DNA of 64,000 bases from Paracyclopina nana (lineage: Eukaryota; Arthropoda; Copepoda; Cyclopoida; Cyclopettidae). The notes below the pieces were generated by a model, which was not told the DNA's origin, searched no databases, and saw only the letters and a list, made by a program, of their open reading frames with translations. Location of the stretch: positions 3,236,501 through 3,300,500 of the forward strand of contig JAGUCH010000002.1 of assembly GCA_019096065.1 (NCBI GenBank), read 5' to 3'. Numbering within the stretch: position 1 is the stretch's first letter; each line of letters opens with the position of its first letter. This document shows, piece by piece, positions 17,377-61,250 of this stretch. The position numbers were made by a program, and so were the translations under genes.

Positions 17377-20300
17377 ATGGGGAACTACAAATCCAGGCCT
17401 CAAAATTCGTGCTCTGAAGAGCTGAGAAAGAAAATTGGCGAATTTCATAGCGCCATCAAAAAGAAAGTGGAGTATGATCTCAAAATTCCCCTGCCCAACG
17501 ACATGAGGTAACAAAAAAAAATCTCCATTTCGCACTGCATTGATAGCTTCTATTACCAGCGTGCTTATTTACTATCATCACATATAGATAGGAAAACGTG
17601 CTGAGAAATTCAAATTAAAGTGGTAGTTCAAAAACATGAAATATTGGGTTATTATTACTAGTTTTTTTGATGCATGCAGTGAATTCGAAGAGGCTTGTGC
17701 TCTCGCTCAATCAGACAGAATATCCACTTTTGCCACCTTGGAAAATGCCAATTTGTATCATGAGGATCGAGGCCTTTATCCTTGCCATTTATGCTGCCAA
17801 ACGTGCACTCAGGTAACCAAAAATTACAATATGACTTATAAGGAAGTCTGAATTAAGTAGATTTTATTATGCTTTGCGAGCTTGACAAAAATGGCAAATT
17901 ATTGCATTTGTATCGCTACTATAATTTTCTACTTAGAAATCAGAGTGTCATTTATCGTGCAGGAAAACAATTATGACCACTTCAAAGTGTTCATTCAGCA
18001 TGGAGGACGAGTTAATCTGCCCAGTGGAAATGGATTTTTGCCCCTGCATTTGGCCTCCTTCAAGGGTGATGCCGATTTGGTAGCTCTTTTAGTTGACCAC
18101 ATGAGTCCAGATGAAATCGACCACCCGGGATTTGGTGGATGCACAGCATTACATTTGGCCATTTTGAATGGCCATTTGTCAATTGTCCACATTCTGGCCG
18201 CAAACAAAGCTAATTTGCTCGTAAGAACGCAAAAACAATTGCCTTAATTTTTATAGCATGTTTTTTTCAAAGGCAACAGATGTCGCTGGTTTCACTGCAT
18301 TGCATTATGCAGCTTTCCTGTCAAGAGAAAGAATCACTCAATTTTTGCTCAGCTTTGATCATGTTGACCCTAATCTACCTGGTACAGTGGGAGATAGACC
18401 GCTTCATTTTGGTAATGCCATGGGTTATTTCACAAATGCTAGCCACTCTATAATTATGGCCGTTTTTTGCAACACCTAGCTTGCCTCAGGGGGAATTTGC
18501 GGATTGCGACACTTTTGGTGGAAAAAGGTGCCAGCGTCAATTTGACCGATGATGAAAAGACCACACCTCTTCACCTTTCATGCCAAGTAATTAAAAGCAG
18601 TTTTGTATAGGCAAGAAAATTAAAATTTCATTTATTGCGATTCAAAATAATGGTAGACTGGTTTCCAAAAATCTGCTCAGTCATAAACTTTTATGAATTT
18701 GGTGGTTAGGAAACGTCTATTTTGCATAATCAGCAGCTAAAACAATAATTTTCCATTTTTATTAATTTTTCCAGAATGGCCATGTCATTTTAGTCAACTA
18801 TTTACTTCAGCCCAGATTCAGCTGTGATCCACATTGTACCACAATCTACTTGGATACACCATTACATCTGGCGTGTTATGCTGGACACCTTAATGTACTA
18901 ATACAATTGTTTTCTTACCGCAAGCCAAATATGCTGTGAAAATTATCCTAGGTGATCAAGTGTCTGTTGTCATCTTGCGGCAAAGAATCTCTTTACAAAG
19001 AAAACATTTGGAGTGAAACACCATTTCATGCTGCTTGCACTTATGGCAAGAGCACAGATTTGACTGGGTACATTCTGGATACAAATTGTGTATCCATCAA
19101 CATTCAAGGTTTCTTACTAACTTCTACAGCACTATACAAAAATATGTATATATATTTTCATTTTTAGGTCGAGATGGACACACCCCATTACACAGCGCTT
19201 GCTACCAAGTAAAGCATGATTTATTACTCAATAGCTGGATGATGTTCATTCATTTTTAGGGTCACATTGATATGGTCCATTTTCTGCTGGAACGAGGTGC
19301 AAACTTGAACTTAACTGCCCTGGCTTCATCTAAAGTTTTGGTGGCTGGACACACCATCAGCAAATCAACTGAAGGTAACAAAGGCTGAAAAATCATTGTG
19401 AATGTCCTATTTTGAATGTCTCTTCATAGGTGATGATACTGAGGAGCAAACTTGTCTTATGTGGGCGTATGAAAAAGGACATGATGAAATTGTCACCTTG
19501 CTAAAACATTACAAACGTCCAGATGAAGAATTCGCGCGCGGAGATTACACTCCATCAGGTAAAAGTTGCGTTGCTCACATTTGAAATGTTCCGATTGTTT
19601 ACGTTTCAGGCAGCGAAGGCTCATACGTACCAGTTCCGTCTCCCTTGGGCAAAATCCGATCCATGACCAAGGAGAAAATCGATGTACTCTTTCTAAGGTC
19701 GAACTTGCCCTATCAGTATCACTTACAGCTCAAAGATATTGAATGTTTGGAAACTATTGGATCCGGATCTTTCGGTGCTACAAAATACTAATTTTTACCC
19801 TGAGCTATAAAGTAAGATGCTCCATTTTTAGGTCGAGTATACAAGGCAATTTATAAAGGTCGAACTGTGGCCATTAAGAGATACAGGACCACTGGTTCAT
19901 TGATGAAATCCGAAGTATACTGCAAGATGAATTATTTTATAAGTGTTCATATTATGATCATTTTTCATAGGTTGAAATGTTTTGCAGAGAAGTCTCCATT
20001 TTGGGGAGTTTGAACTCACCCTATGTCATCAGGTTACTTGGTGCTTGTCTTGAAGACCCAAGTCAATTTGCCATTGTTACTGAATACATTTCTGGAGGAT
20101 CGCTGTTCAGGTAAGTTTTTTTCATCTTGAATTGAATATGCTTATTTATTGTTCTCTCTTGATTAATTTCCCCCTTGCCCAATAATCAAACAACAGAAAT
20201 AATGTTTTTCACAGCGTGACAGTAATATTACTTTTTTTAGAGGAGTCTAATTTTTGACACATTGTTTCTTCTATTGCAAAAGGCCAAATACCTCTCCAAG

Positions 20301-21927
20301 TCATGAAGTTGCTTGGCCCATTCCAAAACTCTCCACTGTGGCAAAGATACTGACCCATCTCGTTTTCCTCTCTAAAATGAGTTCTTAAATTATCACTGGA
20401 TCTGCAATAGTTTTTTGAAAGTGGCTTACCTCATCCGGATTGACATGGGTCAAAAGCATTCTCTTCATATTAATAATTTTGGGTAGACTATTCCTAAAAT
20501 GAAGTGTTTTTAGCCAAAGAATTTTATTTAAAACTTTAAGGGACTTACGTGTTGCAAGGGTCCATTTCATCACTCATGATTAGGTCATCTGACCTTTTTG
20601 GTGAGAAAAACGAGAAATACTCCTCCCCTTGAGCATTGCTTCCAATCCACATAAGAACAGCCTTGAATAAAATTCATAATTGGCAATAAAACTCTAATTA
20701 ATAATATCTTACTGAGGCTAAAAACAAGGCAGCCTTCATTGTGTGAAGATTTCAGTTCAACTGTTGAGATTCAAGGCCAGAATAGCTACTTTTATACTCA
20801 TCTGCATACATGGCATACCCACATTTGAGAGCTTTCATTTATTTGTCTTTTGATGTGTTTTGAGTCCTATTTTGGTCCTTTTAAGAGAAGTTTTGTTACA
20901 GTGTCCTGCATGAGCAAAGATGTTCCATGGATATTTTGACAAAATTGGGCATTGCCCTGGATGTGGCCAAAGGCATGAACTATTTGCACTTGCTACCTCA
21001 ACCCATCATTCACAGAGATCTCAACTCTCACAACATTCTTTTGCATGAACAAGTTAAAAACTATAAGCCTTTTTGCTCTTCAAATATTTTATTCAATTGA
21101 TTTTTTATAGGGGAGAGCTGTAGTGGCTGATTTTGGTGAGTCCAGATTTTTGCTCAATCCTTGGGAGGAAAATATGACTAAGCAACCTGGTAATAATGAC
21201 TTAAAAATCGTTTTTTTATTTGATATTTCAGCCTCATTTTAAGGTAATTTGAGGTGGATGGCACCAGAAGTTTTCACTCAGTGTACCAAGTACTCAGTGT
21301 CAGCAGATGTATTTAGCTATGGATTGTGCTTTTGGGAGCTCATGTCTGGAGAATTGCCTTTTGCTCACTTAAAACCAGCTGCTGCAGCAGCAGACATGGC
21401 ATTTAGGCATGCTAGGCCTCCTTTATCCACCTCAATTCCTGAAGAAATTGCTTCCATCATTTCTAAAGCTTGGCACAAGAACCCAGGTGAAAGGCCCAGT
21501 TTTCAAGTCATGGTGGAAATGCTAAATCATGCTTGGAATTGTGACTCTGTGCAAAATATTGCTACAATGCAAGGTGTACAACCTGCACTAAATTATGCCT
21601 GCAGGGTGAGCTATACATGATTTTAGTAACTTTTCTCTCCTTAAAAAATATTCATCATAGGAAAGTCCCACATTGAGTGCTGGGAGAGGGACTCCTCCCT
21701 TGGGATCTAGAAATGTCCAAAAAGTTAGGTCAAGGCTAGAGAAAAACAAAAAATTCCAGCTTCCAGGTAACTGCATTTTTATTACATCTGTTAACTTCTA
21801 GTTTTGATAATAATTGATGCTAGGAATGGTATTTGGTGGATTTCATGATCAAATCAGTAATGAAGAGCTGAGAAAATGTGTGAACCAAAATGGCTATGTG
21901 GTACCAGAGTCAAATTACAAGTTTTAA
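17377..21927 (+). CDS. Tnni3k: TNNI3K-like ankyrin repeat serine/threonine/tyrosine kinase
   Basis: Eighteen exons, all phases consistent, give 839 residues (human TNNI3K is about 835): 17377..17507, 17680..17812, 17963..18220, 18273..18411, 18480..18586, 18775..18894, 18952..19108, 19168..19208, 19260..19374, 19430..19558, 19610..19774, 19832..19914, 19971..20110, 20902..21052, 21111..21189, 21244..21605, 21661..21766, 21824..21927. The start MGNYKSRP is the family's own N-terminus. About ten ankyrin repeats fill residues 60-440, ending in the hallmark [14 protein letters not shown]. The kinase domain has a glycine loop GSGSFGRVY near 495, VAIKRY near 515, HRDLNSHN with the catalytic Asp near 612, DFGES near 629 and [14 protein letters not shown]. 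In vertebrates this kinase acts in heart muscle; the invertebrate role is unknown. Intron 13 (20111-20901) hosts an antisense gene. The TAA stop overlaps the stop of the opposing C2 gene. Confidence 0.95.
20145..20150 (-). terminator. Poly(A) signal of the nested gene
   Basis: AATAAA on the minus strand, 87 bases past the stop codon at 20237 and still inside TNNI3K intron 13. Confidence 0.55.
20237..20739 (-). CDS. Nested secreted prohormone-like protein, 112 residues
   Basis: Four exons on the minus strand (20739..20713, 20661..20549, 20493..20430, 20371..20237) lie wholly inside TNNI3K intron 13. Introns are 51, 55 and 58 bp, all GT-AG, and the phases agree throughout. The ATG opens a signal peptide, [21 protein letters not shown], split by intron 1. 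The mature part is short and broken by basic pairs: SPKR, NMKR, RGKR (a Gly before KR, the usual amidation and cleavage signal) and CNRR. Only two cysteines remain after the signal. A TATA box lies 50 bases upstream and AATAAA 87 bases downstream. The layout is that of a neuropeptide or peptide-hormone precursor, but I do not recognise the peptide. It might instead be a small secreted protein with chance basic pairs. Confidence 0.75.
20789..20796 (-). promoter_or_regulatory. TATA box of the nested gene
   Basis: On the minus strand the sequence is TATAAAAG, about 50 bases before the ATG at 20739. A start site about 30 bases downstream would fall near TCAACAG, leaving a 5' leader of some 20 bases. 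Confidence 0.6.
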
Positions 21928-30773: not shown

Positions 30774-33228
30774 TCACAGCCCTAAAATATTATAGGGAGT
30801 CCTGGAGTTCAACCTGAAATTGTTTAATTATTGGCTATTGTCCAATTAATTGAAAGCTATAACGTAGTTACCTTGATCCAAAAGGTAAACCTGAGGCTGT
30901 GACTTCGACCTCTTCTGAGGCTGCCCCAGCTTGATCAACATTGTAGTTTGGCCTTCTTGACTGAAAAGTGATTGATTTTTAATTAGGAACTTTTCCAATT
31001 TGAGAATCACGCGACCTTTCTACTTACTTTTCTCACATGAGAAACTGCGTTTTCGCGGAATAGAGTATCACTGAATGAGTTGGCATCATAATTGGCCTGC
31101 TGTAAAGAAAAGAAGATGAAAGAAAATATTATTTTCAAAGAAAACTTTTCATTGTTTTTTTCCGGGAAATTCTCACAGCTGATGCAGTATAAGAGTTTTC
31201 GTTGTAGATGGGAGCATCGAAACTGGAAATGGGGCTGTCATAACTTGAGGGTAATGGAGCTCCATGTATCACTTGGTCTTCCTGAGGCTCAGCATTGTCT
31301 GAGTATCCAAACGATGAGCCAACATCCAATTCGAAGACGTCAGGCAAGTTCACAGCATTCTCATAAGGCACATAAATCGTCCTGTAATTAGATTTGTTCA
31401 ATGCCATTGCCATACTTGTTGCGCAACAAATGCTTTATATTCTCGCGCAACCTCTCTTTAGAAATCTGTTTACCTAATGGCCTCAGGATTCGGTGGGTTG
31501 AACTGGTTGTAGCTGGGTGGCTCAGCCGAAGTGTAGGTGTTCAAAGCTGGCTGAGGTTGATTGTATTCATTGGCAGGTGCTTGAGCATAGGCACTCTGGG
31601 ATTGGTACTGAAAAAGGAGAACGTAAATGTTTTTTTCTCCAAGATAGTTAGATCAAAATAGTTATTACCTGTTGCTGATCCTCAGGCTTGTCTTCATAAA
31701 AGATAAAGTAGACATCTTGCTCTTCTTCAGGTGCAGCATAAGTTTCCTCCACCTTGAGTGGCACATCATATGCATTAAATGAGTTTATTGAAGGTGCAAC
31801 AGCTTTGGGTGACTCGTAACTGGCTTGAGCTTCGTAGTTCGTTTGCTGGGGCTCGTCATAAGTTTGACCATCGAATCCAGGCAAAGAAGGCTGACTGTAG
31901 GTAGCAGGTGCGGGTTGTTGGTAGGTGGCAGGTGCTGGACTATTGTAGGTGCTCTGTGCTGCATTACCAAAAAAGACGAATGGCTTGATGGTAGGTGGAG
32001 CAGGTGCATACGAAGGAGTGGTGGGAGTGCTGTATGCGGGTGGAGCTGTTGTGTAAGCTGGCACTGCTGGCACTGCATTATAAGTAGTTGTGGCAGGTGC
32101 GTAGGCAGGTGTAGCTGGTGCTGAGTTTAGCAAGCTTGATGAGCCATAGCTGGGCTGTTGGTTATATTGGTACGCGGGTTGAGCGGGAATTTCAGCGGGA
32201 AGCTGAATATTGTTGTAGGTGTTTTGTGTGGGATTGTAGACTGGTTGAGGTGACACGACAGGTGCATTATAGCTATTTGATGACTCATAAGAAGGTGCGG
32301 CAGGTGCACTATAAGAATTTGAGGCGGCAGGAGCACTGTACGAATTTGAGGCTGCAGGTGCGCTATAAGAATTAGAGGCTGTAGGTGCACTATAAGAATT
32401 AGAAGCTTCAGGTGCACCGTAAGAATTAGAAGCTGCAGGTGGACTGTATGAGTTAGAGGCAGCAGGTGCGCTGTATGAGTTAGAGGCAGCAGGTGCGCTG
32501 TAGGAGTTAGAGGCAGCAGGTGCGCTGTAAGAGTTAGAGGCAGCAGGTGCGCTGTAGGAGCTAGAGGCAGCAGGTGCGCTGTAGGTGCTCTCGCTTTTTA
32601 CAGGTGGAGGAGGTGGAGCGGCTGATCCGCTGCCAGGTTTACCAGGGTAAAGGAGTCCAGCCTCAAATATGTTGTTGACCATTGGCAGCCATTTGGGCAA
32701 ATCATCCGGGAAGGGGTTTTTGATGTTCAAAGGTGCATATCTTCCGTGTCCAACCCATCCGTATTGCTTGCTAGGGCCTGCAGGCTTAATGATCACCTGC
32801 CTTTTCGGTGGAGCATAGGAAGGTGCTCCGTAGGAGGAGTCTCTCCTCTCAGCCTCTTGTACGACAGCAGGTGCTTTGTCTTGCTTTTTCTGGGGCTTCT
32901 CAGCAGGTGCTGGCTTTTTCGCGGGTTTCTTCTTCAGGACCGGCTTCTTCTTTACCTCCCTTGGCAAGGATTTGACCACAACAGGCTTTGCACCTTTTTT
33001 AGTTGTCAGCAAGAATGGATTGACTGGTTTCTTCGTTGGCTTGTTGACAGCAGTTGTTGCTGCTGTCGTGGTTGTAGGTGCAGGTGCAGTGGTTGTGGTT
33101 GTGCTAGGTGCTGTCAGTATTTTGGCATTTTCTGGAACTGGAGGTGGCGGTGGGTAATCCTCTGCTTTTAGCTTGTCTGCATTCACCGCGAGCACAGTGG
33201 CACTTAAAAGTATGACTAGTAACCTCAT
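30774..33228 (-). CDS. Secreted proline/serine/tyrosine-rich repeat structural protein
   Basis: Six exons give 699 residues: 33228..31669, 31607..31474, 31381..31177, 31099..31028, 30960..30872, 30813..30774. A signal peptide (MRLLVILLSATVLAVNA) is followed by a threonine tract, a KKPAKKPAP-type lysine/proline block, then about a dozen nine-residue units of the form SYSAPAASN and further Tyr/Pro/Gln-rich sequence (PAPATYQQPAP). Such low-complexity Tyr-Pro-Ala repeats are usual in cuticle, eggshell or silk-like extracellular proteins of arthropods. No chitin-binding R&R motif was seen. A splice acceptor (TTTTTTCCAG) stands right before the leader of the ATG exon, so a non-coding first exon near the TATA at 33381 is likely. 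Confidence 0.85.
32295..32585 (-). repeat. 27-bp coding minisatellite (SYSAPAASN units)
   Basis: About eleven tandem 27-base units encode the nonapeptide with small changes (PPA, GAPE, APT variants). The units at 32460-32580 are nearly identical, implying recent unit gain. Confidence 0.85.
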
Positions 33229-33380
33229 GATTGGCTCAGACCTGGAAAAAAAGTTAAAAGTTTACAGCTTGGATTTTTTATGGCCAGTGCAGAAAAAAAA
33301 TTACTGCGTCTTTTTCAAAGGTTACTCTGCGTTTTCATCGCACTGCAGCTATCAAAGCAAATTCCTGAGAACCGAAATTA

Positions 33381-41459: not shown

Positions 41460-43863
41460 TTATTTTATATTTTTCCATTGTGAATCCGTTGACGAACTTT
41501 GCCTCTGCAGATGGGGATTTTTCGCAATGAAATCGAGGTACATGCTTAAGTACCAATTGGGTGCGTTTTCTAGGCTGTATTGGTAGTTAGCAAGGAACTC
41601 TTCGCCTTTCTTAACAGCTTTTGTAGTTATGTATGCATTGATTACTCCAAATCTCGGAGTGTCCACCTCAACCTGTGCGGAGTTTGCATCAAAATGATGG
41701 TTGGCTTTGTGTCCCATGGTTCCTTGGTACTTTGAGGTACTCGAGTACTCAAAGGGGATAATTCCAGTTGCTCCACAAGTTTTCATTGTATGCCTGCAAA
41801 AATGCAGTACATCGTAAATTATGAAGCATAAAAGTGGTAAATTGATTATCATCATTACGTGTTCATGTTCTCCCTTTCGATGGTTTTAATGTCATGGTTT
41901 GCATGTAGCTGCTCAATGTAAGCCTCGTACTGGGCATTACTTAGCAGATATCCTCCATTCAAAACATACACAGTGGATTTTGGCACATCTTGAGCTGCAA
42001 AGGCTCCCTCATTGGCATCTGCATCTGGAAACTCTTTGGACTTTTGTATGTAAACATACTTCTTATCCAGAGGATCTTGCAAATGTGGCTGATCTCCAAA
42101 GGAAGCATTGGAAGGTTTTTCAAAATGATAAATGAGACCTTTGGGCTGACTAAATTTCAATTCAGCAATTCCATCCAGATTGCATTCAAAAGAGTCAACT
42201 TTTGATTCCCTCCCATTAATCTAAATAGTAAATTAGTTCATTTTAAATATTTAAAATTGAATAAAATGCAAAGTTACCATGATCCCATTTTCAAAGTCAC
42301 CAATCATGGCCAACTCCAAGTCTGGATAAATGTAAGAAATGTCACTGCCTGTGAATTCTCCTTTAGCATTGGCTTTCCCATGCAACCAAGATCTGCCAAT
42401 GAGGCCCCTCCAACTTGGTCCAATTGGAATCCCATCTTGGTACCTTCCAATGTAAGACAGTCCCTTGGAAATTTTGTCTGAGCAAGAACTGAATTTCTCC
42501 ACTGAGACCACACCAAACATTTGCACAATCCCATAAAGTTGGCCATTTTTCAATGCACCTTGAACTCTGAGCGGACAATTATCTTGCTTCAACTTGACAT
42601 AGTTTTGAGTGTCTTTGAGCACAAAAGTTTTGGCATCTAAGCAAATCAAGAGCCTTGTCCTCCATCCTGGATGAGATGCTTCCAATGGGTCAACCTTTGC
42701 TTCTATCTGCCCATTTACCATTTGGGTTTTTAGCAAGAGTTTTCCTCCACTGGAAAAAATGACCACAGTTTTTTCCTTGAACCCTGGTCTTCCTTTAAAA
42801 GCTGAAAAAGCAATGTCCAATTTTGGATTAGTCTTTTCCAATGGGTCAAAATCTGTGTTGAATTCATCCCAGAACAGCATGGGATCTGACGCTGCTTCCA
42901 CCCATTGAATTAGGCTTGATTCACATTGAACTGTCTCATTTTGCTGTTGATGAACATTCCTTTCTGCTCTCTTGCCAAGTGACAGAATCATGTTAAAATG
43001 GCCATCTTGAACTTTTTCTGCAATTTCTGTTTGTAAAATCTTGCACCCATCTAACTTGTAATTTGATAAGCTCTTTGGCACATGGCAATTTGCAAAAAAG
43101 TCACCATCAACATTGTTGCAAATTGAGACTTTTTCCCAATCTGTAACTAGACATTCATCACCAAATTGGTGAGGCTGGCAGCCCAAAATCGCAGTATTAT
43201 TGTGTATAGCTTTAAAGTACAATTTGCCTGAAAATGAAGTAGTCAAAATGGTTAAAAATTAAACATAGCTAACATTATTTTTTGAAGTGTTTACCAGATG
43301 TGTCAGAAATATTGGCCAACAAATTTTCTTGGGTAAAAGTTTTGTGTACTCCAACCAATTTTCCTCCCCTTGCATATCCTGTTATAAAATCCTTGGTAAC
43401 TAAGAAAATAGTCACTTGACCCTGAAATTCAAACAATTTGCTTTTGTAGTAGCTCAATTTAAGTTTTTTAGTATCTAACCTCAAGCAGATCATTGACAAA
43501 TGTTCCAGTCACTTTCTTCACATCTTCATATCCCAATTTCAAGCATTTGTTGTGCTTGAGGCCATAGTTTAATTTCTCATTTGACCCATATTGACCAAAG
43601 GTCAAGGTACCTAGGCCATTGAATGGGCCACGTTTCGGTTTGTGGCCTCCACTTGTTTTATAATCATACATGAAAATCGCCCCTTCATCCTCACATGACA
43701 CTGTTTTAACTATCAAATCATTTGATGCTAAGTCCTCGCTACCGATTGGACACTCAAACTTGGGATCACTAACTTTGTCAAACCAGTGTTTGAAATCACT
43801 TAAATTAAGTCCGTGGCAGCTTGCATAGAATGACACAATGCAAACAAATGACAAGAGATGCAT
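41460..43863 (-). CDS. SETD7-like MORN/SET protein with a signal peptide
   Basis: Five exons with consistent phases (43863..43480, 43421..43295, 43227..42278, 42220..41859, 41793..41460) give 718 residues, about twice SETD7 (366). The start MHLLSFVCIVSFYASCHG is a good signal peptide; a longer start at 43902 would add 13 residues. MORN-like strands occur near GPFNGLGTLTFGQYG, ITGYARGGKLVGV and SDISYIYPDLELAMIGDFENG. The C-terminal SET region follows SETD7 in order: IYHFEK, DPLDKKYVYI, GAFAAQDV, the NH motif MGHKANHHF near residue 640, PRFGVINAYITTKAVKKGEEFL and NYQYSLENAPNWY. SETD7 methylates lysines of histones and other proteins in the nucleus or cytosol. Here the signal peptide suggests export or ER passage, so the substrate is unknown. 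The active-site Asn, His and Tyr appear retained. Confidence 0.85.
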
Positions 43864-44284: not shown

Positions 44285-47200
44285 ATGTCAAAGGATGAAG
44301 ATTCTGAGATTTGTGCCACTCTAGAGCCCCTTTTCACTTATGGGGTGAAACCTAATGTTCATGGAGGAGTTCATTTCACCAAAAATGACACCTTACTTTA
44401 CCCATCTGGTTGTGGCATCTCTCTGTACTCGACCAAAGATAAAATTCAAGACTTAGTTCCTTTGGCTGAAAAGGGTAAACACCTTACTGCCATTGGTAAG
44501 TAGTTCTAAAAGTCCTCTGTAATATCTCTCATTAAAATCCCCGTATCCCATTTAGGAGTTAATAAAAACAGGAAGTTGGTAGCTTTTGCTGAGAAAGGAG
44601 ACAGACCTCATGTGGTGGTGTTTGATTTGGAGGTGAGAAAGCGAAAAAAAGTGCTGAGATGTGCAGAGTTTGTGAGTGAAACTGTCATTTCTCTGGCATT
44701 TTCGCACGACTCCAAGTACTTATTAGCCCAAGGAGGTCCACCTGATTACAGCTTGGTGTACTTTTTTTGGGAGAAAAACAAAGTCATTACCACTCTCAAG
44801 AACTTATCCACCATCAAAAATCCAGTCACAGAGGTGTCATTTCATCCCAAAGACAGATCTGTTGTCTGTGTAGTTGGCCAGGGCATTTTCAAGGTACAGT
44901 CTTAAAAATTATATTACAAATGTTGGATTGAGATTTAGGCAATGAACTCTACTTTTGTAGATGTGCAGGCTAACTGAGGGTGTGCTGAAGCAGTTTGGAT
45001 TCCAAAAAGCTGAACACCACTCTATGACATGCCATGATTGGCTTGGACCCAGGCATGTCTGCATTGGCACCAAGGTGGGCAAGATTCTCATCATGGAAGA
45101 TGCTGAGCTGAAGACTTCAGCTGATCTCATCAGCTTGATAGATAGCTCAGCCCTCTCAACTGGTTCTCTTTCTGAAGCTGAATCTACTGAGAGCAAGCAT
45201 GGAGTGAGAACAGCTGAGCAAAGGGAGATCAATGCTTTGATATCTTTCAAAGGTGGATTCATTTGCTCTCTGGGGTCTGGCAGAGCTGTCATTGTGGAGG
45301 CTGTAATCAACAAGGATGAGGAAGAAGTTAAATTGAAAGTGACTCAAATCATAAAATTACCACTTAGGAATACCACCACTGCTGGTACTTGGATGTCTTC
45401 TGAAACAGCTTCAGGCAGCAAAATCATTGCCATGGCTTTGAACTCATCCGAGTCCAACTTGATTGCTCTCACTGATACTTTGCAACTCCTGAGTTACTCC
45501 TTAAAGGCTGGCAGCAACAATGCCAAGGGTAAAAGTGAGTTTCAAGTGTTCAGCCACTCCTTCCACAATGGTTCCATCACTGGAGTGGATGTTTGCCAGA
45601 GGAAGCCTTTGGTAGCCACCTGTGGTGTGGACAGGAGCATCAAAATCTGGAACTATCTCACTCTGGAGCTTGAACTGAGCAAGGAGTTTGAGGAATCTGT
45701 GGAAAGTGTGGCACTGCATCCAACTGGAATGTACATATTGGCTGGTTTCTCTGATAAGCTCAGATTGATGAATCTTTTGATTGATGACATCAAAACGTTT
45801 AGAGAATTCAAGTTCAAAAATAGTACAGCTTGCAGTTTTAGCTGTGGTGGCCATCTCTTGGCTGCTGTGTCCCACAACAAAATTGCCATATTCTCCAGTG
45901 TCAACTTCAAGAACATGGTCAACCTCAATGGACATGATGGCAAGGTGACATCAATCACATGGTCCAAAGATGACCAATTTCTGGTCTCCTGTGCTGAAGA
46001 TGGATCTTTGTACCAATGGGATGTAGCTGAGGGCAAGAGGATACATGAGACTGTCATCAAACAGTGTGCTTACAATGGTGTATCAATGGATCCTGGGACA
46101 AGTGGGATGATTTATGCTGTGGGCTCTGACAAAACCATAAAGCAAATCAAAGAGTCTCAAGTCCTGAGAGAAGTGGATTTACACACTATTACACTATCCT
46201 CAGTGGTTTTGTCACATGGTGGCTCTATGCTATTTACTGGTGCTTCCACAGGTTGAAATTTGATGTTAGTAAAAAGGGGAAATTGTTCAGTTTTTTATGC
46301 TTTTTAGGAAGAGTACAGTCATTCAAGTTTCCACTGACTTTGCCTGGTGAATGGCTAGAGTACAAAATTCATGGGGACGAGATAACTCAAATGAAACTCT
46401 CCCTGGATGACAATAGGTTAATCACAGCCAGTAGAGATGGCTCTCTCTGCTTTTGGCAAGTGAAAACCTCCAAGGGCCTTCCTCCAGTCAGGAATGACTC
46501 TGATTTTCAATATGCTGCTGAAATTCTCATCACCAAGTCTGAGCTAGAAGACAAGAACAAACTTGTCTTCACTCTACAGCAGCAAGTTGATGAGACCAAA
46601 ACTGAGAGTGAATACCAGCTCAGGCTGAAAGACAATAAATACATGGAAGAGGCTAGGTAAAGACAGCACATACTACCAGCTTGCCAAAATTCATGTTTTG
46701 ATAATACAACCATTTTTGCAGATTAGCCAAGAAAAAGTTCAATTGTGACATTGCTGAGCTGAAGCAAATTATCAACAGACAAGAAAATGAGAAACTGCAG
46801 GAGCAAAAAGAGAATCAAATTAACATTGATAATATGATGGAGGAGCATGAAAAGGCTATTGCTGAGATATCTGAGCAATTCAAGGCCAAGCTGATCATTG
46901 AGTACCAAAAGTATGACAATCTTGAGGACAAGTACAATGCTATTAAAAAAAGCTTTGACAAGCAAATGGAGGAAGTGGACAGGAAGACAAAGATTGAGCT
47001 GCAGAAAATGCAAGACAAGTTCAATGCTCAGTTGTCAACTAATGAGATAGAAGTGAGCAAGGCAAAATTTGTTGCTCTGATATTGTTTGCTAATTTCATT
47101 ATTTTTAGGTCAAAAAACATCAAAAGATTGGTGATGAAAAAGTCAGAGCTGTGGAAGAGATGCTCAAGCAAACTGAGGAAGATGCGGACAAGGAAATTAT

Positions 47201-48630
47201 TGAACTCAAAACCAAATATGAGAGGATTTTGAGGACAGAGAGGGAGGCCAATGTGAGGCTGAGAGGAGAGTCTGGTATAGTCAAGAAAAAGCTTCAGAGT
47301 GTCATTAAGGACACTGATGAGTACAAGACCAACATTGCAAAGATGACTGCAGAAAACCAAAAACTGCATGCCACCATCAAAAACATGGACAAAGACATTG
47401 TTGACTTGAAGAATGAAATCAGAAACAGAGATGAAACCATCAGTGACAAAGAGAAGACAATCACTGAGCAAAAGAGGGTTGGAATTGAGCTGGAAAAAAA
47501 CAGGTAAGCCTGAACTTATTCCATATTGCCTATAATGGTCTTGATCAGATGCTTGATTTCATTCCCTATGTGCGAAGCATGGCATTTAAGTGCCTGATTT
47601 GCGCATAAGCGCCCTTACAGAGCTGTGAGTTAAGTGTGCTCAATAGCTCTTCGTGCGCTCTAAATCTAATAACTGGAGGCTCAAATGCGCGCGCTCGCGC
47701 CCAAACTGACTTGCGTGCTTGTTCGTGCGTACATTTGTGCGCTTTTTTTTTAGTGGGCGCAAATGCTCAATTGGAACGCAAATTATAAGTGCGCGTTAGT
47801 ACTCAAAAAGCGCGCAAGATATTAGAACGCTCACATGCTCAAAAAAGCTCGAAAGTAACTAGCGCTCTCATGCTCAAAAAGCATAACAATTTCTTGTTTC
47901 AAAAGGTTCGTTCTGGAGCACAAAATTGAGAACCTGAAGCAGCAAATATTACCTAAGGATGATTTGATTGAAGATTTGCGCTCTCAAATCAATGCCATGG
48001 AGGACGAGCTGAACTCTGTGACAAAAACTCAGCAAGAGTTGCAGGCTACAATTGATGAAACTCGGACCAAATTCATCATTACTAACCAAGAGCTCAACTC
48101 GGAGAAGAAGAAGTGCAGCAGCTTGTCGGTCATCCAAGCTAGGCTATTTAAAGACATTAGCGACTTGTCCAATAATATGATGCAAGATGGCAAATCATTG
48201 AGAGATGCAGTGGCCAGTTTGTGCAAAAAGTACATAAAGCATCTTGATTCAGTAGGAGGCTCAAGCAGCCACATTGAGGATGAATCAGAAACGAAGAAAG
48301 CCCTTGAAGAAATTATGAGGCAAAAGGCATTCTTGGAAAGGTACTACAATTATAATATTACACAGTTAATTGCATCAGCTGATTATAATGGCTTTGTTTG
48401 TGGTTTACAGATCAGTGACTTCGTTGAAAAACCAGATGGAAAAGGAGCGAAAAAATCACAAGCAAGAGTATTTCCGCAAGTTGCGCGAAAATGCTTTTCT
48501 GCTTGAAGAAATTGCTGAGCTCAAGAGGGAATTGACTGATGCCAAAAAGTACCAAGTACCAAAGAGTATCCGTAGAAGTTCGGTGTCTCTGTCACGCTCA
48601 ATGTCCTCTGCCTCGGAAAAATCCAAATGA
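44285..48630 (+). CDS. Cfap57: CFAP57 (WDR65), ciliary WD-repeat and coiled-coil protein
   Basis: Eight exons with consistent phases (44285..44495, 44556..44893, 44961..46251, 46308..46656, 46722..47052, 47109..47503, 47906..48340, 48411..48630) give 1189 residues, close to the vertebrate length of about 1250. The first 600 residues are WD40 repeats; diagnostic stretches include SKYLLAQGGPPDYSLVYFFW, ATCGVDRSIKIWNYLTLELE, ILAGFSDKLRLMNLLIDDIK and DGSLYQWDVAEGKR. The rest is coiled coil with the conserved YEKxLR..E.N.RL.GE.G segment (here ILRTEREANVRLRGESGIVK). CFAP57 is needed for assembly of a subset of inner dynein arms in motile axonemes. Its presence implies motile flagella in this species. 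Intron 7 (402 bp) is abnormally long and CpG-rich compared with the other introns. Confidence 0.95.
47504..47905. repeat. CpG-rich repetitive insert in CFAP57 intron 7
   Basis: The intron has many GCGC/CGCG tetramers (for example AATGCGCGCGCTCGCGCCC) and repeated TGCTCAAAAA-like blocks, in contrast with the AT-rich surroundings. No clean inverted ends were found, so the origin is unclear: perhaps a degraded satellite or a transposon fragment. Confidence 0.4.
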
Positions 48631-48770
48631 AACCATGTGGTGGTTGTTATTTTAATATCAGGAAGTTCGCAGTGTGACCAGGCAAGTGTGACACAAACGT
48701 TTTGGAAGGTCAGCCATTTCCCAATTGCTGCAATTATCCCAAATTTGCTTAATTTTGTACCCATTTGGTA

Positions 48771-48776
48771 AATAAA
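48771..48776 (+). terminator. Poly(A) signal of CFAP57
   Basis: AATAAA lies 141 bases after the CFAP57 stop at 48630. Confidence 0.65.
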
Positions 48777-49323
48777 GTGAATTCCCAAGTGATTCTTATC
48801 GCGAATTCTGGGAACATGAATGTTGTTGTATGGCAATAGTAGGTGTTGCAGAAAATTGCTATATTGATGGTGATGGTCACGCATTTATAGTTACAGCATG
48901 ATTCATCTAACCAATGCAATGCTGGTTGTGTTTTGTGATTTTTGTGGAACAGTAAAAAAATGGTTCATATCCAACATTTTAAATTAGACGTACAAATACA
49001 TTCTAACTATCAAAAAAGTGAACATTGAAAAATCACTTTTTATAACTCATAGCTTCCAATAGTTACTGGAAATTTTAAAATAAAGACTCTTACTTTGAAA
49101 ATGTATTGAGAACATTTTTTGAAAAGAAAGAAATTGTTTGTCGGATCCTGTGTTTATTTGTGTACTTCAAATGAATGCAAAATTACTTTAAAGTTCATCA
49201 TAGGTTTCGCTTCGCTCGACGCGTAAGCTACTAAGCTTCTACCTTTATGATTAGCAGAATCATTGAGCGGAAGTAAAAAACTGTGATTCAGTGCTGAAAC
49301 TGCTGTTAGCAGGAAAGAACATA
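48777..49323. other. Spacer before the secreted repeat protein gene
   Basis: AT-rich, no ORF of note. A TTTTTATAAC match lies near 49037, too far from the ATG at 49324 for an unspliced leader. Confidence 0.35.
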
Positions 49324-52300
49324 ATGTGGAATTCAAAAACGGTCCACACAATTATAGCCCTGCAGGTGAGCTTCCATTACACCTACGTATAATACTACAT
49401 TCTATAAACTGTAAGAAATTCAATTTGTCTCCTGTAAGGCAATGATAGCTGCAGCAGTTCAAAGTGAGCTCCAAGTGGTCAAATATTGGAATGGAATTGG
49501 CTCAGAGGGAAACGCAGCTGTGATTGCAGTCAAGACCAATGGCCCAATACAGGAGTGTATTTGGACAGGTCCCTCCAATACAGACTACACGTAAGTGCAC
49601 CAAAAATACCATATTTTCTGCATTTATTCTAATGGAATGGAATTTTATTTTAAAGCTCACAAGACAGAAATAATAGAGATGTGCAAGTGACCATCGACGA
49701 AGATGATACACTATGCAAGCTCAAAGTAAGCAAATCAGTGGCCAAAGATCACGATGGCCTTTGGGATGTACTTGTCATTGGCAAGTGCAACGAGGGCAGC
49801 TCTTCTTCGAACAGACGCAGAAACAAGCGACGAAAAAGGCAAATTGTCTCATTCAGGAAACCTGCGACGCAAATCAGAGGACGACCAACATTTCTTAGAC
49901 CCAGCCAGCAGAAAGAAGTGGAATACCTGAGGTACAAGAGTTTACCAAGCATGACAACAGCACCTAAAAATTTTTTTTCATAGGAGATCATCAAGTCGAC
50001 TGAGCAATGAGGATTGCAAGAATGAAGCTGAATATTACGAGATTGAAATGCTCATTGTGGATTCCTCTTCTGCAAACAGCAGAGACAGAGATCGAGGCAC
50101 AGGCAAAATTTCCATGCTGGCTGGTCAATATGAGGTGTATGGTGCGCTTGACCAAGAGGTTATACTCACTGCAAGAACTGATGCCATGCCCACAAAGTAC
50201 GTGATGGTAAAATTGGAAAGTCACTGCTAATTCGAATTTTTATAGGTGTGTGGTACGTGAAAAAGACAGCAGGGGAGATGTCATTATTCAGTTGGATACC
50301 AGGTCCAACCAGGAGTGCAAATCGTACCGAGGCTCTGATGTTTGCCTCGAAAAATACCAGGATGTCAAAGATGGCATTCTTGCTTGCCATATCATCATCA
50401 AAAAGATGAATGAAGACCTCGAAGGTAAAATTAATAAATGATGTGTTATAATAACAAGTCTAATTGTTTTTTATTGAAGGTTTTTGGTATTTTGAGGCCA
50501 ACGATGATCCGAAAGCATCTGCTGAAATTGAGCTCATTTATGTGGCCAAGCCTCTCAAAACTTATATCGAAGCGGATGGCAAAGAGTATTCTGGTACAAG
50601 CAGTAGAAGTGATGTTTCTTTGGCAGCTGGAAGCCAAACTTTGACTTGTAGAGCTGAAGATGGGATTGATGTGAAATGCAGCCTTTGGATTGGTGTGGAG
50701 CCTTTCAAAGATGCCGATGATTATGAGTGCAGGGGAAGCTCACGGAATGAGGAGTAATTAGTTTGCTTTGAGATTCTCTTCAAAAAGGGCTACAAAAATT
50801 GATATCTTGCAGGTGCACTGAATTTGAGGTAGAGTTGGATGCTCAGCTGCACAATGGCTTGGATTTGTACTGCCAATGTGTACCCATGGGTATCCTTCTG
50901 AAAAAAGATATCCGGGATGACCCATCATTGGCCAAAATCAAGATCAAAGTTGACGAGTCGAGCAGCACCTCAAATCGAAACTCTGATAGAAATTCTGATA
51001 GAAACTCTGATAGAAACTCTGATAGAAATTCCGATAGGAATTCTGATAGAAACAGAGATAGAAATACTGATAGAAACTCAGATCGAAATACTGATAGGAA
51101 TTCGGATAGAAATTCAGACAGAAACAGAGACAGAGATCGAAACAATAACCGAGACAGAGATACGGATAGGCGTGGATCAAGCAGAGACAAAAGTAATTTA
51201 TAGCAAGGCTTGCAATATTGAATAAACCTAATAAGTTATATTTGCATCCCAGAATGCGTGCCCAGTTTGACCGGAGTAAGAAGATCCTCAGATGTGGAAT
51301 TGACGGTGTGCGCTTCAAATAAGAAGGAAGGCGATCGTTTCGACTTTGATGTGGAATTTGAATCAGTGCCAGCTCCAAATAGAATCACTTGGTACATGAA
51401 TGATGTACAAGGCAGAAAAGAGACTGTCGATGAGGGAAGAGTTGCGGGCAATTTCGAAGCTTTTGACCTGGATGAAGATGTATTGCCCAATATGAATATT
51501 TTATAATCTCATAAACCTAAAAAAAAACTTTTTTTCAGAGGAAAGTGGATAATAGATTCCTTGCCAGTATGGAAATCAATAAGCTTGACAGGGACTCATT
51601 TGCTGAGGGGAACCACATTTTGCTTGTTGAGCATGATGACGAAGATGTGGAATTCATCATCACCATTTCCAATGAGAGGAATTGCAGGCCAACTCAAGAG
51701 CCTGGCCAAGGAGACGCTGGATTTTGCTCCGATGGCAAAAGCTCTGATAGGAATACAGACAGGAATTCTGACAGAAACACCGATAGGAATTCCAACAGGA
51801 ACAATGATGATGATGACGCTGAGATTGAATCCAAGGCCAAGAAAATTCTCATTGACAGTTGCTTGGAGATGAGCTCCTCTCTTTTGGAATACTACGCTCC
51901 GGATGGGAGCCGAAAATCCAGCTCGAAAAGTGACTCTGCGTTCTCTCAAGATTTGGAGGACTTTTTCACTGCAGCCAAATGCACTGGCTATGATCAAGAT
52001 GTGGTCGACTATTACGCCAAGGGCTCCAGAAGCTCCAGTTCAACCAATAGCAGGGACAGAGACAGAAATCGGAACCGAAACAACTCTCCACTGACGCAAA
52101 AGAAGGATTTCCAGAGCAGTTTCCCTGGCAGAACAGCCATTGGATTTCAATCCGGATTCAAAAAGAACAAAGTTGCCCTCGTAGCTGCTGCAACTCAAAA
52201 TGATAATCCGGACGAGGCCAATGAAGAAGAAGAAGACTTCCAAAATTTGCTCCTCACAGCTGCTGAGATCCAAGAGCAATATGTTGAAGATCTGGAAGCT

Positions 52301-55703: not shown

Positions 55704-58700
55704 ATGTCAATGAAGGACACAAAGTCTCCCATGGCGGCTTTAAAAGAGCCAGGAGACCATTTTAAGGTGGCGGTTCGCGTTCGGAAGCTTTTGAAACGCG
55801 AAGAAGCTTCCAACGTGAAATGGAAGGTGGAAGGTGATAACGTCATTTCAAGTCTTGATGGCCAAAGAAGGTGAGCAATTGAGTAAAGACAAAAAAGCAT
55901 GTGCAATGAAGATGGTTTGCTTTTTCAGGTACCAATTTGACCGAGTTTTCGACCAAACAGAGCAAAACGAAGATGTGTACAAAGATGTGGGATTCGAAGT
56001 CATCGACTCGGCCATTAATGGCTTTAATTCAACTATTTTTGCTTACGGTCAAACGGCATCTGGCAAAACGCACACCATGATGGGCAATGAAAAGGATCCT
56101 GGCATGATTCGGTTGGCTGTCAGCCACATCTTTGACGCCATCGAAGATACTCCCGAAAAGGCTTTTCTCCTACGAGTGTCATACATTGAAATCTACAATG
56201 AGAAGGTGACAGATTTACTGTCGCAAGAACCAAAGCCTTTGAAGGTTTTGGATGACAATACAGGCGCCGTCACAATTGATGGGCTACGAGAAGTGACCAT
56301 AAGTAGCGCAGATCAAGTGCTCCAAGTTATGACTGAGGGAGAAAAGAATCGACACTTCGGGGAAACCAACATGAACGAGAAGAGCTCACGTTCGCATACA
56401 ATTCTTAGGATTATCATAGAGAGCTCGGATCAAGAATCGAACTGCATTGAAGGCTCTGAACAAGAAGGGCGAGCAATTATGGTCAGCCATTTGAATTTGG
56501 TCGATTTGGCTGGTAGCGAACGAGCAGCTCAAACAGGCGCAGTTGGCGAGCGATTCAAAGAAGGTGCTTATCGTTATATTTTGGGTCTCACGGCATATTT
56601 TATGTAACAATATCTATTAGGCACCAATATCAACAAAAGCTTGATGGTATTAGGCCAGGTCATACGAGATTTGAGCAATGGCTGCAACCTGTCGCAGATC
56701 TCGTTCAGAAGCTCTAAGCTCACGAGAATCTTGAAAAACAGCCTGGGCGGCAACACCAAAACTGCCATCATATGCACTGTCACTCCTGCTGAAATGGAGC
56801 AGACCAAATCCACCCTCGAGTTTGCAGGGCGAGCCAAAACTATTGTGCAGTGTGCTCATGTCAATGAAATCTTGGATGATCGTGCTCAAATGAACAGGTA
56901 ATTATTAAAATGTTAATAATTTTTCTCACGCTGTACGTAATTCTTTTGTGTAGGCTTCGCAAACAGATTGCTGAGCTTCAGAATGAAGTGAGCCAGTTCA
57001 AGAACTCTGATTTGGCAGAAAAGAATGAGCTGCTAATGAGGAAAAATGCGGACTTGCTTAAACAGCTACAAAATCAGTTCCTTCACTCGACTTGGACTGA
57101 TGCCTCCTCTATTTTGGTCACATCAAGTAAACCGCGAGCGAAAAATGATCGAAGACTGACGTGGTGTGCTCCACGTGTGACCGACAATAGAAGAATGAGC
57201 CTTGGAGGCTCAATGAGGTGGGCGAAAATGCTACAAGAAAGTGAAAATATGAAAAAGACTGCAGCTCTGTCCCAAGACTTGCCTTTAAAGGCTGATTGCC
57301 CCGAAAAGAAACCTCAATTTGACAATATTTCCACCAGGAGGAAAAGGAGAGTGCAATTCGGTGCCATCTCTGAAGAGATATTTGAGGAACATCATGAAGA
57401 TCCAGTCGATGGGAATGATAGTGAAGCAATTCAGCAACAGCTTGTATCCGACCAAGTTGATGCTTTGATTGATTCGGGTATTGTCACAGATATTCGTCAA
57501 ACTCTGCTTGGTCTTCAAGCCAAACTTGAAAGGGACGCTGACGAAAGGTGTGAAATGGAAACGAAAATAGCTACACTTGAGAGGGAAAACCAATGCCAAA
57601 AACAATTGGAAGAGGAGAATGCTCAGCTGAAAGCTAAATTGGCCAATCCTGCTGAAACTGTTATCTGCCCAGAGCCGAAAAATGAAAAAGTTGAAGCTTT
57701 GGAAAAGGAAGTGGAAAATCTTTTGAAAGAGAACCAAGAAATGAAAGACCTTATGGAATTTGTCCAGTGTGAAAAAGAAGTGATGGAGGAAAGAGTCAAT
57801 GAACTTGTTCAAAGGCTTGATGCTTCTGCCAAAGAATGTGACCTAGCCAAGCAAAATGCAGAGGCTTTCAAGGAAGAGAGCTGCCTCTGGTCCAACATGG
57901 CGTCAAAAATGAAAAATTCGATGGCTGAATTGCAAACCCGAGTGGATTCGCTGACAGATGACAATATCCGGTTACAAGAAGGTGCCGAACCCATACCAAC
58001 TGGAGAAAGCGCCAATAAAGAATCGGAGGAAAATGAGAGGTTGAAAGAAAAATTGAGTGAGCTGGAAAACAGTCATGAGACTCTTTTGAATGATAAGCGT
58101 TTGGTTGAAGAAGAGGCTGAGAGCCTTAAAGTGCTTTTGAGTGCCAAGGATGCAGCTATTGATGCATTAACTCAAGAAGTGAGAGAATTAGAAGAAAAAT
58201 TGCTCTCGCCCACTGCAAATGAATGTACACAGGATAACATTGTCCCCTCAAACCAAGCCTTGTCTGAAGAAATGGAGAGTCTTAAGGAAAAACTAACTGA
58301 GGTTAGCAGAAACTGCGAAACACACTTGCAACTTAAACTTTCCCTTGAAAGTGAGGTAGAAGGCCTAAAATTGCTATTGAGCAACAAAGAATGTGCAATT
58401 GAAGCATTTGCTAAAGAAATTAGTGCTCTAAGAGAACAATTAGACTTGGCCCAATCCACAGAAAAATCACACGTTGGCATTGTACTTTCAAACGAAGCCT
58501 TGTCTGAGGAATTGGAAGACCTAAAAGAGAAACTAAGGGAGGGTCATGAAAATTACAAGACTCTTTCAGAAGTTAAGGCTTCAGTGGAAGATGAGGCTGG
58601 TAACTTGAAAGCAATCTTGCGTGAGAAAAATGCTGAAGTTGAGGCATACATGCAAGAAGTGAAAGCATTAGAAGAAAAGTTGAATTCTGATGCTGCTGCA

Positions 58701-61250
58701 AAAAGCTCTGAGTCTCGCAGTGTTCACTCAAGTCAAGCATTATCCGAAGAAATGGTATGTCTGAAAGATAAGTTAATTGAGGCGAGCAACAATTGTGCAA
58801 CACAAATGCTATTTAAGCATTCCCTTGAAGAAGAGGTGGAAAACTTGAAAATGCTTTTGAGTGACAAGGATGCTACATTAGAAGTATTTTCTCAAGAAAT
58901 GAGTGTTTTGAAAGAGCAGTTGGATGTAGCCCAATCCAATGAGAAATATCAGGAGGGAATGATTCAAGCCTTGTCTGAGGAATTGGAAAGCCTAAAACAA
59001 ATGCTCAATGAGGTTCACAACAACTGTGAGACTCTCAGGTCTTCTAAGGCAATGCTGGAAGAACAGACTGAGAGCCTGAAAGTGGCCTTGAATGAGAAAA
59101 ACGCTATGGTTGAGACATTCACTCAAGAAGTGAGAGCATTGGAAGAAAAGCTGAATTCTGCTTCAAGAAATGAAAGCTCTTTATCTGACTTTGCCCATTC
59201 AAATCAGGCCTTGTCTGGGGAATTGGAAGAACTGAAAGAAAAATTAAAAGAAGCAACTGACAATTGCGGAATTCATTTGAATGCCAAGAAATCTCTTGAA
59301 AAGGAGGTTGAGAGCTTAAATATGATCTTGAGTGACAAAAATACGGCCGTTGGGATATTCTCTCAAGAAGTTGAGTCTCTCAATGCCAAAATTCATGAGT
59401 TGGAGGCAAGCATTACACAGTTGGAAGAATCAAATGAAAAATTAAGAGAGTCAGCGAGCAACTATGAGACTCTTTCAAATGCCAAGCTTGTGCTTGAAGA
59501 AGAGGCAGAGTGCCTTAAAGCGCTCTTGGGTGACAAGAATGCTACCATTGAGGCATTTACACAAGACGTAAGAACATTGGAAGAAAAGCTGCTTTCAGCC
59601 ATAGCACAACTTGTCACCAATCAAGCCTTATCTGAAGAAATGGAAAGTATGAAAGAAAAATTAAATGAGGCAATCAATGATTGTGAAACACTTTTACAAT
59701 TTAAGCTTTCCCTTGAACAAGAGGTAGAAAACCTAAAAATGCTTTTGAGTGACAAGGATGCTGCCTGTGAAGTGTTTGCTCAAGAAATGAGTGGTTTTAA
59801 AGAGAAATTGGATGCAGCCCAATCCAATGAAAAATCTCAAAATGACATTATCCTCACAAATCAAGCCTTATCTGAGGAATTGGGAATTCTAAAAGAAAAG
59901 CTAAATGAGGCTTATGACAGTTGCATGACTCTTTCAAATGCAAAGCTGTTGCTTGAAGAAGAGTCCGAGAACCTGAAAGTGATCTTGAGCGAGAAAACTG
60001 CCATGGTTGAAGCAATCACTCAAGAAGTGAGAGTGTTAGAAGAAAAGTTGGAGACTGCCGCATCAAATGAAACCTCAATGGCTAACATGTTTCTCTCAAA
60101 TCAAGCCTTGTCGGAGGAATTGGAAAGCCTGAATGGAAAACTTAATGAGGCAAACAATAATTGCGAAACACTTCTAAAAACCCAGTTTTCTCTTGAAGAA
60201 GAGGTTGAGAACCTGAAAGTGCTCTTGAATGACAAAAATGCTGCTATTGAGTCACTCTCTCAAGAAATTGAATTGCTCAATGCCAAAATTCATCAATTGG
60301 AGGGAAGCATGACACAATTGTGCGAATCAAATATTTCAATTGAGGCACATGAGAAGGCGTTGAGAGAAAAGGATGCTGCAATTCAAGCAATGGCACAAGA
60401 ATTGAAAACTGTTGAAGAAAATCTTGATTCATCACGTGCCATCATAGATGAGTTGGAGGAAATCAGAGCTGAACTGACCGATCAAGTGAGACTCTTGAAA
60501 GATAACTTGGACCGAGCACAAGTTGACTGCGACTCTCGCCAATGTGAGAACCAAGCTCTGGCTAAGCAAGTTGAAGATTTGCAATCTCGTGTCGACTCTC
60601 TGAGCAATCAAGAGGAGCTCCTGCAAAAGTTCCAAAATCAATCAGTTGAGCTATCTTCTGTGAAGAAAGCTCTTCGGCTATCTAATATTGAAACTGCCAA
60701 CAAACTGAAAGCTGTCACTGATGAGTTGAACCAAGAGAAAGGTTTAGTTTATCGGCTAGAAAAAGAAATCCGGAGGCTCAAAGAGGAAATCCGAAGGCTG
60801 ACAACGCAAAAGTGTGATCTCAAGGACTTGGACAGCACATATGTTGCATCCCGAAAACCATTAGAAGAGAAACCTGACAAATGCCAAAATTGCTGCAATA
60901 GGCTAAATGGCCAGCAAGATCTCATTCCAAAATCTTCTGCCAAAGAAAATACCAAAGGTAAGGCATTTTTAATTAGTGATTTTAGCTCGCATTTTTTACA
61001 TTGTCTTTTTGTTTCAGACTTTGCTGAGGGAAGTTCTGTGGCCAAAGAAGTGATGCTTGATCAAGCTCTGAACAAAGTCCGGCAACTAAGAGACGATTTG
61101 GCCAAGTTGCAGAAACGCAAAGACGAAGAAGTTTCATTTTACATGAGTGGAGCCAGTAAGTGGAAGAGCAGGACGATGAATTTGCAGGATAAAATAAAGA
61201 CCTGCTCTTTGTGTAGGGAGCACGTGGAGACGTATGTCCCTGGTAAATAG
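55704..61250 (+). CDS. Kinesin-7, CENP-E-like mitotic motor
   Basis: Five exons with consistent phases (55704..55870, 55929..56563, 56621..56897, 56954..60957, 61018..61250) give 1771 residues; human CENP-E has about 2700. The motor domain is N-terminal: P-loop GQTASGKT at 96-103, switch I NEKSSRSH, switch II LVDLAGSE, then the neck region (QTKSTLEFAGRAK, HVNEILDD) typical of kinesin-7. The tail from residue about 370 on is long coiled coil, much of it made of 80-residue tandem repeats coded by 240-bp units. Near the end are CQNCC and CSLC pairs. CENP-E walks chromosomes to the spindle equator and tethers kinetochores to microtubule ends. The motor is complete. The start chosen is the first ATG of two (M-S-M). 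Confidence 0.93.
58254..60340 (+). repeat. 240-bp tandem repeats in the CENP-E-like stalk
   Basis: The marker codons for QALSEEL/M recur at 58254, 58494, 58734, 58965, 59205, 59622, 59862 and 60102. Most gaps are exactly 240 bases, one is 231 and one is 417. Each unit codes for 80 residues with the pattern ALSEELESLKEKL, then NCETL, LEEEVENLKMLLSDKDA and QE...LEEKL. Confidence 0.9.

What the first reader, a model, noticed from the sequence alone, without database searches (positions are those of the whole stretch)
20237..20739. Undescribed prohormone-like gene nested antisense in a TNNI3K intron
Four small exons, three 51-58 bp GT-AG introns, consistent phases, a signal peptide, a TATA box and a poly(A) signal all fit inside one 791-bp TNNI3K intron on the opposite strand. 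The product has basic cleavage pairs and an RGKR amidation-type site but matches no peptide family that I recognise. This could be a new neuropeptide or peptide hormone, and its expression would be antisense to the kinase.
Basis: partly seen in the sequence, partly recalled or inferred. Interest (0 to 1): 0.85.

Follow-up and report, generated by a model that had tools for sequence, protein, structure and literature searches.

The report
Hormone-like gene inside a kinase intron
A tiny four-exon gene for a secreted hormone-like protein probably sits backwards inside one intron of a TNNI3K-type kinase gene in a small arthropod genome, and it carries the landmarks of a known invertebrate hormone family (insect parathyroid hormone), so it is most likely a new member of a known kind.

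Summary
On the minus strand, 20739..20237 splices into a 112-residue frame with GT-AG introns of 51, 55 and 58 nt, inside a 791-bp TNNI3K intron. A gene finder trained on this genome scores the four-exon model 10.94; 0 of 4000 simulated 791-bp sequences reached that. Against it: the finder prefers a three-exon form without the signal-peptide exon, coding bias is weak, and there are no transcript data.

The genome is an arthropod's (80 cuticle-domain matches). Pfam, NCBIfam and PDB assign no family. But the precursor fits the published description of insect parathyroid hormone (iPTH/PXXXamide, PMC7224569): signal peptide, KR, a 37-residue peptide with SD at 7-8 and Pro at -4 before GKR, then an extension. 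Those residues recur in 224 of 200000 shuffles. I could not align it to real iPTH sequences and found no clear iPTH receptor in the genome, so this filing is provisional. Verdict: probably a real hormone-precursor gene and a new member of a known kind; moderate interest.

The parts
17377..21710 (+). TNNI3K host gene (14-exon model: ankyrin-repeat-like part, then kinase domain)
   Evidence: gene-finder model and its translation; kinase exons on both sides of the intron match TNNI3K 4yff at E 5.7e-42; the outer exons are a prediction only, and the ankyrin label is by eye
20111..20901 (+). 791-bp TNNI3K intron that holds the nested gene
   Evidence: GT...AG read; model
20791..20796 (-). TATA box (TATAAA), 57 nt upstream of the ATG
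   Evidence: found 25-90 nt before 74 of 2523 ATGs
20713..20739 (-). exon 1: ATG and first nine codons (start of the signal peptide)
   Evidence: the least certain exon
20549..20661 (-). exon 2: rest of the signal peptide, N-terminal spacer, KR, first part of the candidate hormone
20593..20598 (-). Lys-Arg (residues 31-32), first dibasic cleavage site
   Evidence: sequence
20430..20493 (-). exon 3: continuation of the candidate 37-residue hormone (residues 33-69 in all; the last residue is in exon 4)
20237..20371 (-). exon 4: final Arg of the candidate hormone, Gly-Lys-Arg, 40-residue C-terminal extension, TAA
20360..20371 (-). Arg-Gly-Lys-Arg (residues 69-72): amidation plus dibasic cleavage signal, or furin-type site
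   Evidence: sequence
20145..20150 (-). poly(A) signal AATAAA, about 87 nt after the stop codon
   Evidence: found within 150 nt after 853 of 6627 stop triplets

Best explanation
A real nested gene, single-copy as far as the searches show, transcribed on the strand opposite to TNNI3K from its own TATA promoter and ended by its own poly(A) signal inside the intron. It encodes a secreted prohormone. The signal peptide is removed after about residue 19; prohormone convertase cuts at KR and GKR; the glycine is turned into an amide, releasing [42 protein letters not shown]. This peptide is most likely the animal's iPTH/PXXXamide-type hormone and would act on a class B1 G-protein-coupled receptor. 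Shown: frame, splice sites, motifs, significance against a simulated null, landmark residues. Inferred: expression, processing, amidation, family, receptor.
For: Gene model above all 4000 simulations; intron lengths at the mode of the genome's short introns; hydrophobic core of the signal peptide built across the first splice junction; TNNI3K host intron verified; protein searches of the genome find only this locus (3 pieces at E up to 0.001; 1 match at E up to 10 for the C-terminal 44 residues). Fits the published iPTH layout: KR, SD at positions 7-8, Pro at -4, GKR, C-terminal extension; precursor of 112 aa against 110 in Tenebrio and in Zophobas. SD at 7-8 with P at -4 occurred in 224 of 200000 residue shuffles. 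Arthropod genome (80 PF00379 matches).
Against: No transcript data. No reference iPTH sequence could be aligned, and 'positions 7 and 8' in the paper are alignment positions. With SD allowed anywhere in the first 11 residues and P at -4, 1864 of 200000 shuffles fit. No clear iPTH receptor: the receptor exon closest to PTH1R in its hormone-binding domain (C2:7300497) is probably joined to a transmembrane part closest to CRFR1 and CALCR; a recalled PTH1R transmembrane query gave 14 matches, the best only 40.3 bits at 36 percent identity, at that same receptor. The hormone holds an internal KR, which cleavage would split. The gene finder prefers the form without the signal-peptide exon.
Confidence: 0.5

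Rival explanations
1. A real nested prohormone gene of a lineage-restricted or undescribed family, not iPTH; the products are ordinary convertase peptides (for example the 11-residue [16 protein letters not shown] between KR and GKR).
For: No match in Pfam (only DUF7787 at E 0.12, 12.8 bits against a cut-off of 25) or NCBIfam, and only chance-level PDB hits (E 2, E 1.7); no clear iPTH receptor; the landmark agreement could be luck.
Against: Layout and three landmark residues agree with the iPTH description.
Confidence: 0.24
2. A real secreted protein that is not a hormone: RGKR is a furin site that frees a 40-residue, partly amphipathic, one-cysteine C-terminal peptide (antimicrobial, matrix or ligand-like).
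For: R-x-K-R directly before the extension; helical moment up to 0.53 for residues 86-103.
Against: The extra KR and the Gly before KR are more typical of hormone precursors (general knowledge).
Confidence: 0.12
3. Not a gene, or a decayed one: chance open stretches with chance splice sites.
For: Low codon bias and a weak intron at the signal-peptide exon; not called on its own by the finder with gene priors.
Against: 0 of 4000 simulations reach the score; of the other 13 long introns scanned, 11 stay at 5.6 or less and the two higher ones overlap strongly predicted opposite-strand genes.
Confidence: 0.09
4. The hormone is the C-terminal 40-mer, a vertebrate-PTH-like or CRF/DH44-like class B ligand (DGSVSLPQW...).
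For: By eye only: an SVS start and an LER in a helix recall PTH and TIP39; the best computed alignment to PTH does not use the SVS.
Against: Alignment of the 40-mer to recalled PTH is no better than shuffles (p 0.12) and the other eight recalled ligands score worse; PF01279 found nothing in the genome (but no control genome rang, so this is not proof of absence); no C-terminal amide signal as CRF/DH44 would need.
Confidence: 0.05

Closest known systems
Insect parathyroid hormone (iPTH) / PXXXamide / QSGamide family (Xie et al. 2020, PMC7224569)
   Same: Signal peptide, KR, mature peptide with SD at 7-8 and Pro at -4, Gly plus two basic residues, C-terminal extension, about 110-residue precursor.
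Vertebrate PTH / PTHrP / TIP39
   Same: Secreted precursor with a basic site before a helix-prone peptide (general knowledge).
   Different: No significant similarity of either candidate peptide to the recalled sequences (p 0.10 to 0.80).
Nested intronic genes of compact animal genomes (general knowledge)
   Same: Complete small gene on the opposite strand of a host intron.
   Different: TNNI3K as host of a hormone-like guest is a pairing that I do not recall; I did not search for it in print.

Membership tests
iPTH/PXXXamide | N-terminal signal peptide | tested here: met
   hydrophobicity and small-residue rule only; no SignalP; depends on exon 1, the least certain exon
iPTH/PXXXamide | KR directly before the mature peptide | tested here: met
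   residues 31-32
iPTH/PXXXamide | Ser-Asp at positions 7-8 of the mature peptide | tested here: met
   SDDLIMSD; the paper counts in alignment positions, so the agreement in offset is suggestive only
iPTH/PXXXamide | Pro at -4 (described as only mildly conserved) | tested here: met
   PDER before GKR
iPTH/PXXXamide | Gly plus two basic residues (strictly conserved) | tested here: met
   GKR, residues 70-72
iPTH/PXXXamide | C-terminal extension after the amidation site | tested here: met
   40 residues
iPTH/PXXXamide | Alignable with known iPTH precursors | not testable with these tools
iPTH/PXXXamide | Cognate iPTHR in the same genome (co-occurrence, not strictly defining) | tested here: inconclusive
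   I count seven class B1 hormone-receptor genes among the matches; one hormone-binding exon is PTH1R-like but its likely transmembrane domain is CRFR/CALCR-like; best PTH1R transmembrane match 40.3 bits. Search is exon by exon and may miss a diverged gene
iPTH/PXXXamide | Peptide activates an iPTHR | not tested
   needs an experiment
Vertebrate PTH family (PF01279) | Sequence similarity to PTH/PTHrP/TIP39 | tested here: not met
   (p 0.10 to 0.80, references recalled); PF01279 not among the Pfam matches
CRF/DH44 | C-terminally amidated peptide of about 40-47 residues (recalled) | tested here: not met
   the extension ends ...KIRLL stop, without Gly and basic residues

The most novel reading that the evidence does not exclude
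An arthropod peptide hormone of no described family, encoded by a complete intron-nested gene whose transcription runs head-on through TNNI3K, so that hormone and kinase output are coupled by transcriptional collision or antisense RNA.
Probability: 0.15. Interest if true: 0.7.

Novelty: new member of a known kind. Interest (0 to 1): 0.42.

Why it matters
If confirmed, it adds an iPTH-type hormone (or an unnamed one) of a compact arthropod genome to a family whose receptor pairing was shown in Tribolium in 2020 (PMC7224569). The lack of a clear receptor orthologue would make ligand-receptor drift in this family testable. It also shows how short hormone genes with introns of about 50 nt can hide in host introns and escape annotation.

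Tried and rejected
Nine recalled hormones (PTH, PTHrP, TIP39, CRF, Locusta DH44, PDF, DH31, PACAP, glucagon) were compared with both candidate peptides, 18 comparisons in all; none had p below 0.10. AKH, corazonin, proctolin, SIFamide, NPF, natalisin, tachykinin and others were considered by recalled motif only and dropped. I first read the iPTH description without seeing the fit, and noticed it later (note).

Relatives outside the genome: none confirmed in viral contigs or genome contigs (4 and 32 pattern stretches, none by tblastn); these are not animal collections, so this says little. Strings of the product in papers: 0 papers for 6 strings and 0 for 6 shorter ones.

Receptors: PF00002 gave 35 matches, PF02793 20 matches at E up to 0.1. 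I read exons of seven genes: C7:801-810k, C7:5777-5792k, C2:7289-7300k, C7:5953-5963k, C7:6476-6479k, C7:5036-5039k and C2:13162k. My labels for them (PDF-like, CRF-like, calcitonin-like) rest on recalled motifs; only C2:7289-7300k and the C7:5962605 exon were compared with PDB. From its hormone-binding exon I first took the C2 receptor for the iPTH receptor; its transmembrane part did not bear that out.

Species: not identified. No COX1 match, the 18S search failed, and a paper search for compact chromosome-level copepod genomes gave nothing that I could tie to it (listing only). Structure prediction was not run: the spliced product is not contiguous in the window, and I judged a single-sequence fold of a 112-residue precursor uninformative.

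Full report
What is there. It lies wholly inside a 791-bp intron (20111-20901) of a plus-strand gene. The exons on either side, joined, match TNNI3K (4yff, E 5.7e-42; the best chain that is not TNNI3K is at 2.6e-20). A 14-exon model of that gene reads to my eye as ankyrin repeats followed by the kinase.

Is it more than chance? I trained a small gene finder on the window and on loci of the same genome. Of the 35 sequences held, 12 loci that lay in the window or overlapped others were dropped. The first codon model came from frames of at least 200 codons, one repetitive frame left out; the last came from 31 predicted genes, 21097 codons and 78 introns. Those 78 were chosen to be at most 100 nt long; their median is 57 nt. 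Among all 187 introns of the looser the median was 64 and 62 percent were at most 90 nt. The candidate's 51, 55 and 58 nt are therefore typical. With start and stop penalties at zero, the four-exon chain scores 10.94. In 4000 order-3 Markov sequences of 791 bp, drawn from 29552 noncoding bases and read on both strands, the maximum was 10.65, and none had a gene of at least three exons, at least 95 aa and only short introns. Among 14 predicted introns of at least 400 nt scanned on both strands, this one is third; the two above it overlap strongly predicted opposite-strand genes. In 24 overlapping 791-bp stretches of another locus (L051) one reached 10.9; it runs antisense to a real receptor exon.

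Against the model. The form starting at the internal ATG, without the signal-peptide exon, scores 12.76. Intron 1 has a net score of -1.63, and codon bias is little more than a third of the training mean. With gene priors the finder does not call the gene on its own. I still prefer the four-exon form because exon 1 joins in frame to give [19 protein letters not shown], a normal-looking signal peptide whose core is built across the junction, and because a TATA box begins 57 nt upstream. The TATA and poly(A) motifs alone are weak (74 of 2523 ATGs; 853 of 6627 stop triplets).

What organism. 80 Chitin_bind_4 matches point to an arthropod; the genome has 92 Mb in 10 contigs. The species was not identified.

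What it is. Pfam gave only DUF7787 at E 0.12, under its cut-off; NCBIfam gave nothing; PDB gave one chance-level hit each for the whole product and for the C-terminal 40 residues (E 2 and 1.7). The published description of iPTH (PMC7224569: abstract, first of two parts of the Results, Discussion and passages read) is: signal peptide; KR; a mature peptide with SD at alignment positions 7-8; a mildly conserved Pro at -4; a strictly conserved Gly plus two basic residues; a C-terminal extension. The family is said there to be absent from Diptera and Lepidoptera. The candidate has each of these: [10 protein letters not shown]......NPDER, GKR, 40 further residues. Two tenebrionid iPTH precursors have 110 residues (PMC9552230, passage). 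Shuffling the 37-mer gave SD at 7-8 with P at -4 in 224 of 200000 trials, and SD anywhere in the first 11 with P at -4 in 1864 of 200000. The fit is by landmark, not by alignment: no family sequence was printed in what I read of nine papers (passages, legends or sections).

Receptor. The genome holds class B1 receptors (35 PF00002 matches, which also include adhesion-type receptors; 20 PF02793 matches at E up to 0.1). The hormone-binding exon at C2:7300497 is closest to PTH1R (E 1.6e-6; next other receptor 1.6e-4), but the transmembrane part about 9 kb away, probably of the same gene, is closest to CRFR1 and CALCR (E 1e-37 and 1.3e-35; PTH1R 3.3e-23; best 60 of 83 hits shown). The exon at C7:5962605 is closest to VPAC1 and PTH2R, but the next exons of that gene look CRF-receptor-like to my eye. 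A recalled PTH1R transmembrane query gave 14 matches, the best 40.3 bits at 36 percent identity, at the C2 receptor. So a clean iPTHR orthologue was not found, which counts against the iPTH reading, though the search is exon by exon and could miss a diverged gene.

Mechanism. Most likely the gene is transcribed from its own promoter inside the intron, the product enters the secretory path, convertase cuts at KR and GKR, and amidation yields a 37-residue peptide acting on a class B1 receptor. Only the sequence features are shown; expression, processing, amidation and receptor are inferred. Coupling with TNNI3K by antisense transcription is possible and untested.

Verdict. The gene is probably real (my estimate 0.9); a hormone precursor is the likeliest kind; iPTH/PXXXamide is the leading, provisional family (0.5). 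Nested genes in compact genomes are not unusual (general knowledge), so the interest is moderate.

Noticed in passing
L050 (G000:C2:7292839-7295679, minus): A long predicted coding stretch, transposon-like by eye and not checked for similarity, lies between the hormone-binding exon and the transmembrane exons of the class B1 receptor on C2.
   Followed up: no
G000:C2:7300497-7300592 (L038) and C2:7289253-7291074 (L050): A class B1 receptor with a PTH1R-like hormone-binding exon and, probably in the same gene, a CRFR/CALCR-like transmembrane domain: a candidate receptor for the peptide.
   Followed up: partly
window 44285-51506 (+): A predicted WD40 plus coiled-coil gene (Pfam WD40 matches for 44961-46253) that recalls motile-cilium proteins; it may hint at flagellated sperm in this arthropod.
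   Followed up: no
window 31648-33258 (-): A repeat-rich frame with many SYSAPAASN-type units and a weak match to New_glue, 25.5 bits against a cut-off of 31.
   Followed up: no
window 55819-61250 (+): A kinesin-motor frame (PF00225, E 2.5e-74) followed by a 1456-residue, coiled-coil-like frame; CENP-E-like by layout, from recall.
   Followed up: no
window 42251-43255 (-): A frame ending in a SET7 N-terminal domain (PF22648, 39 bits against a cut-off of 27).
   Followed up: no
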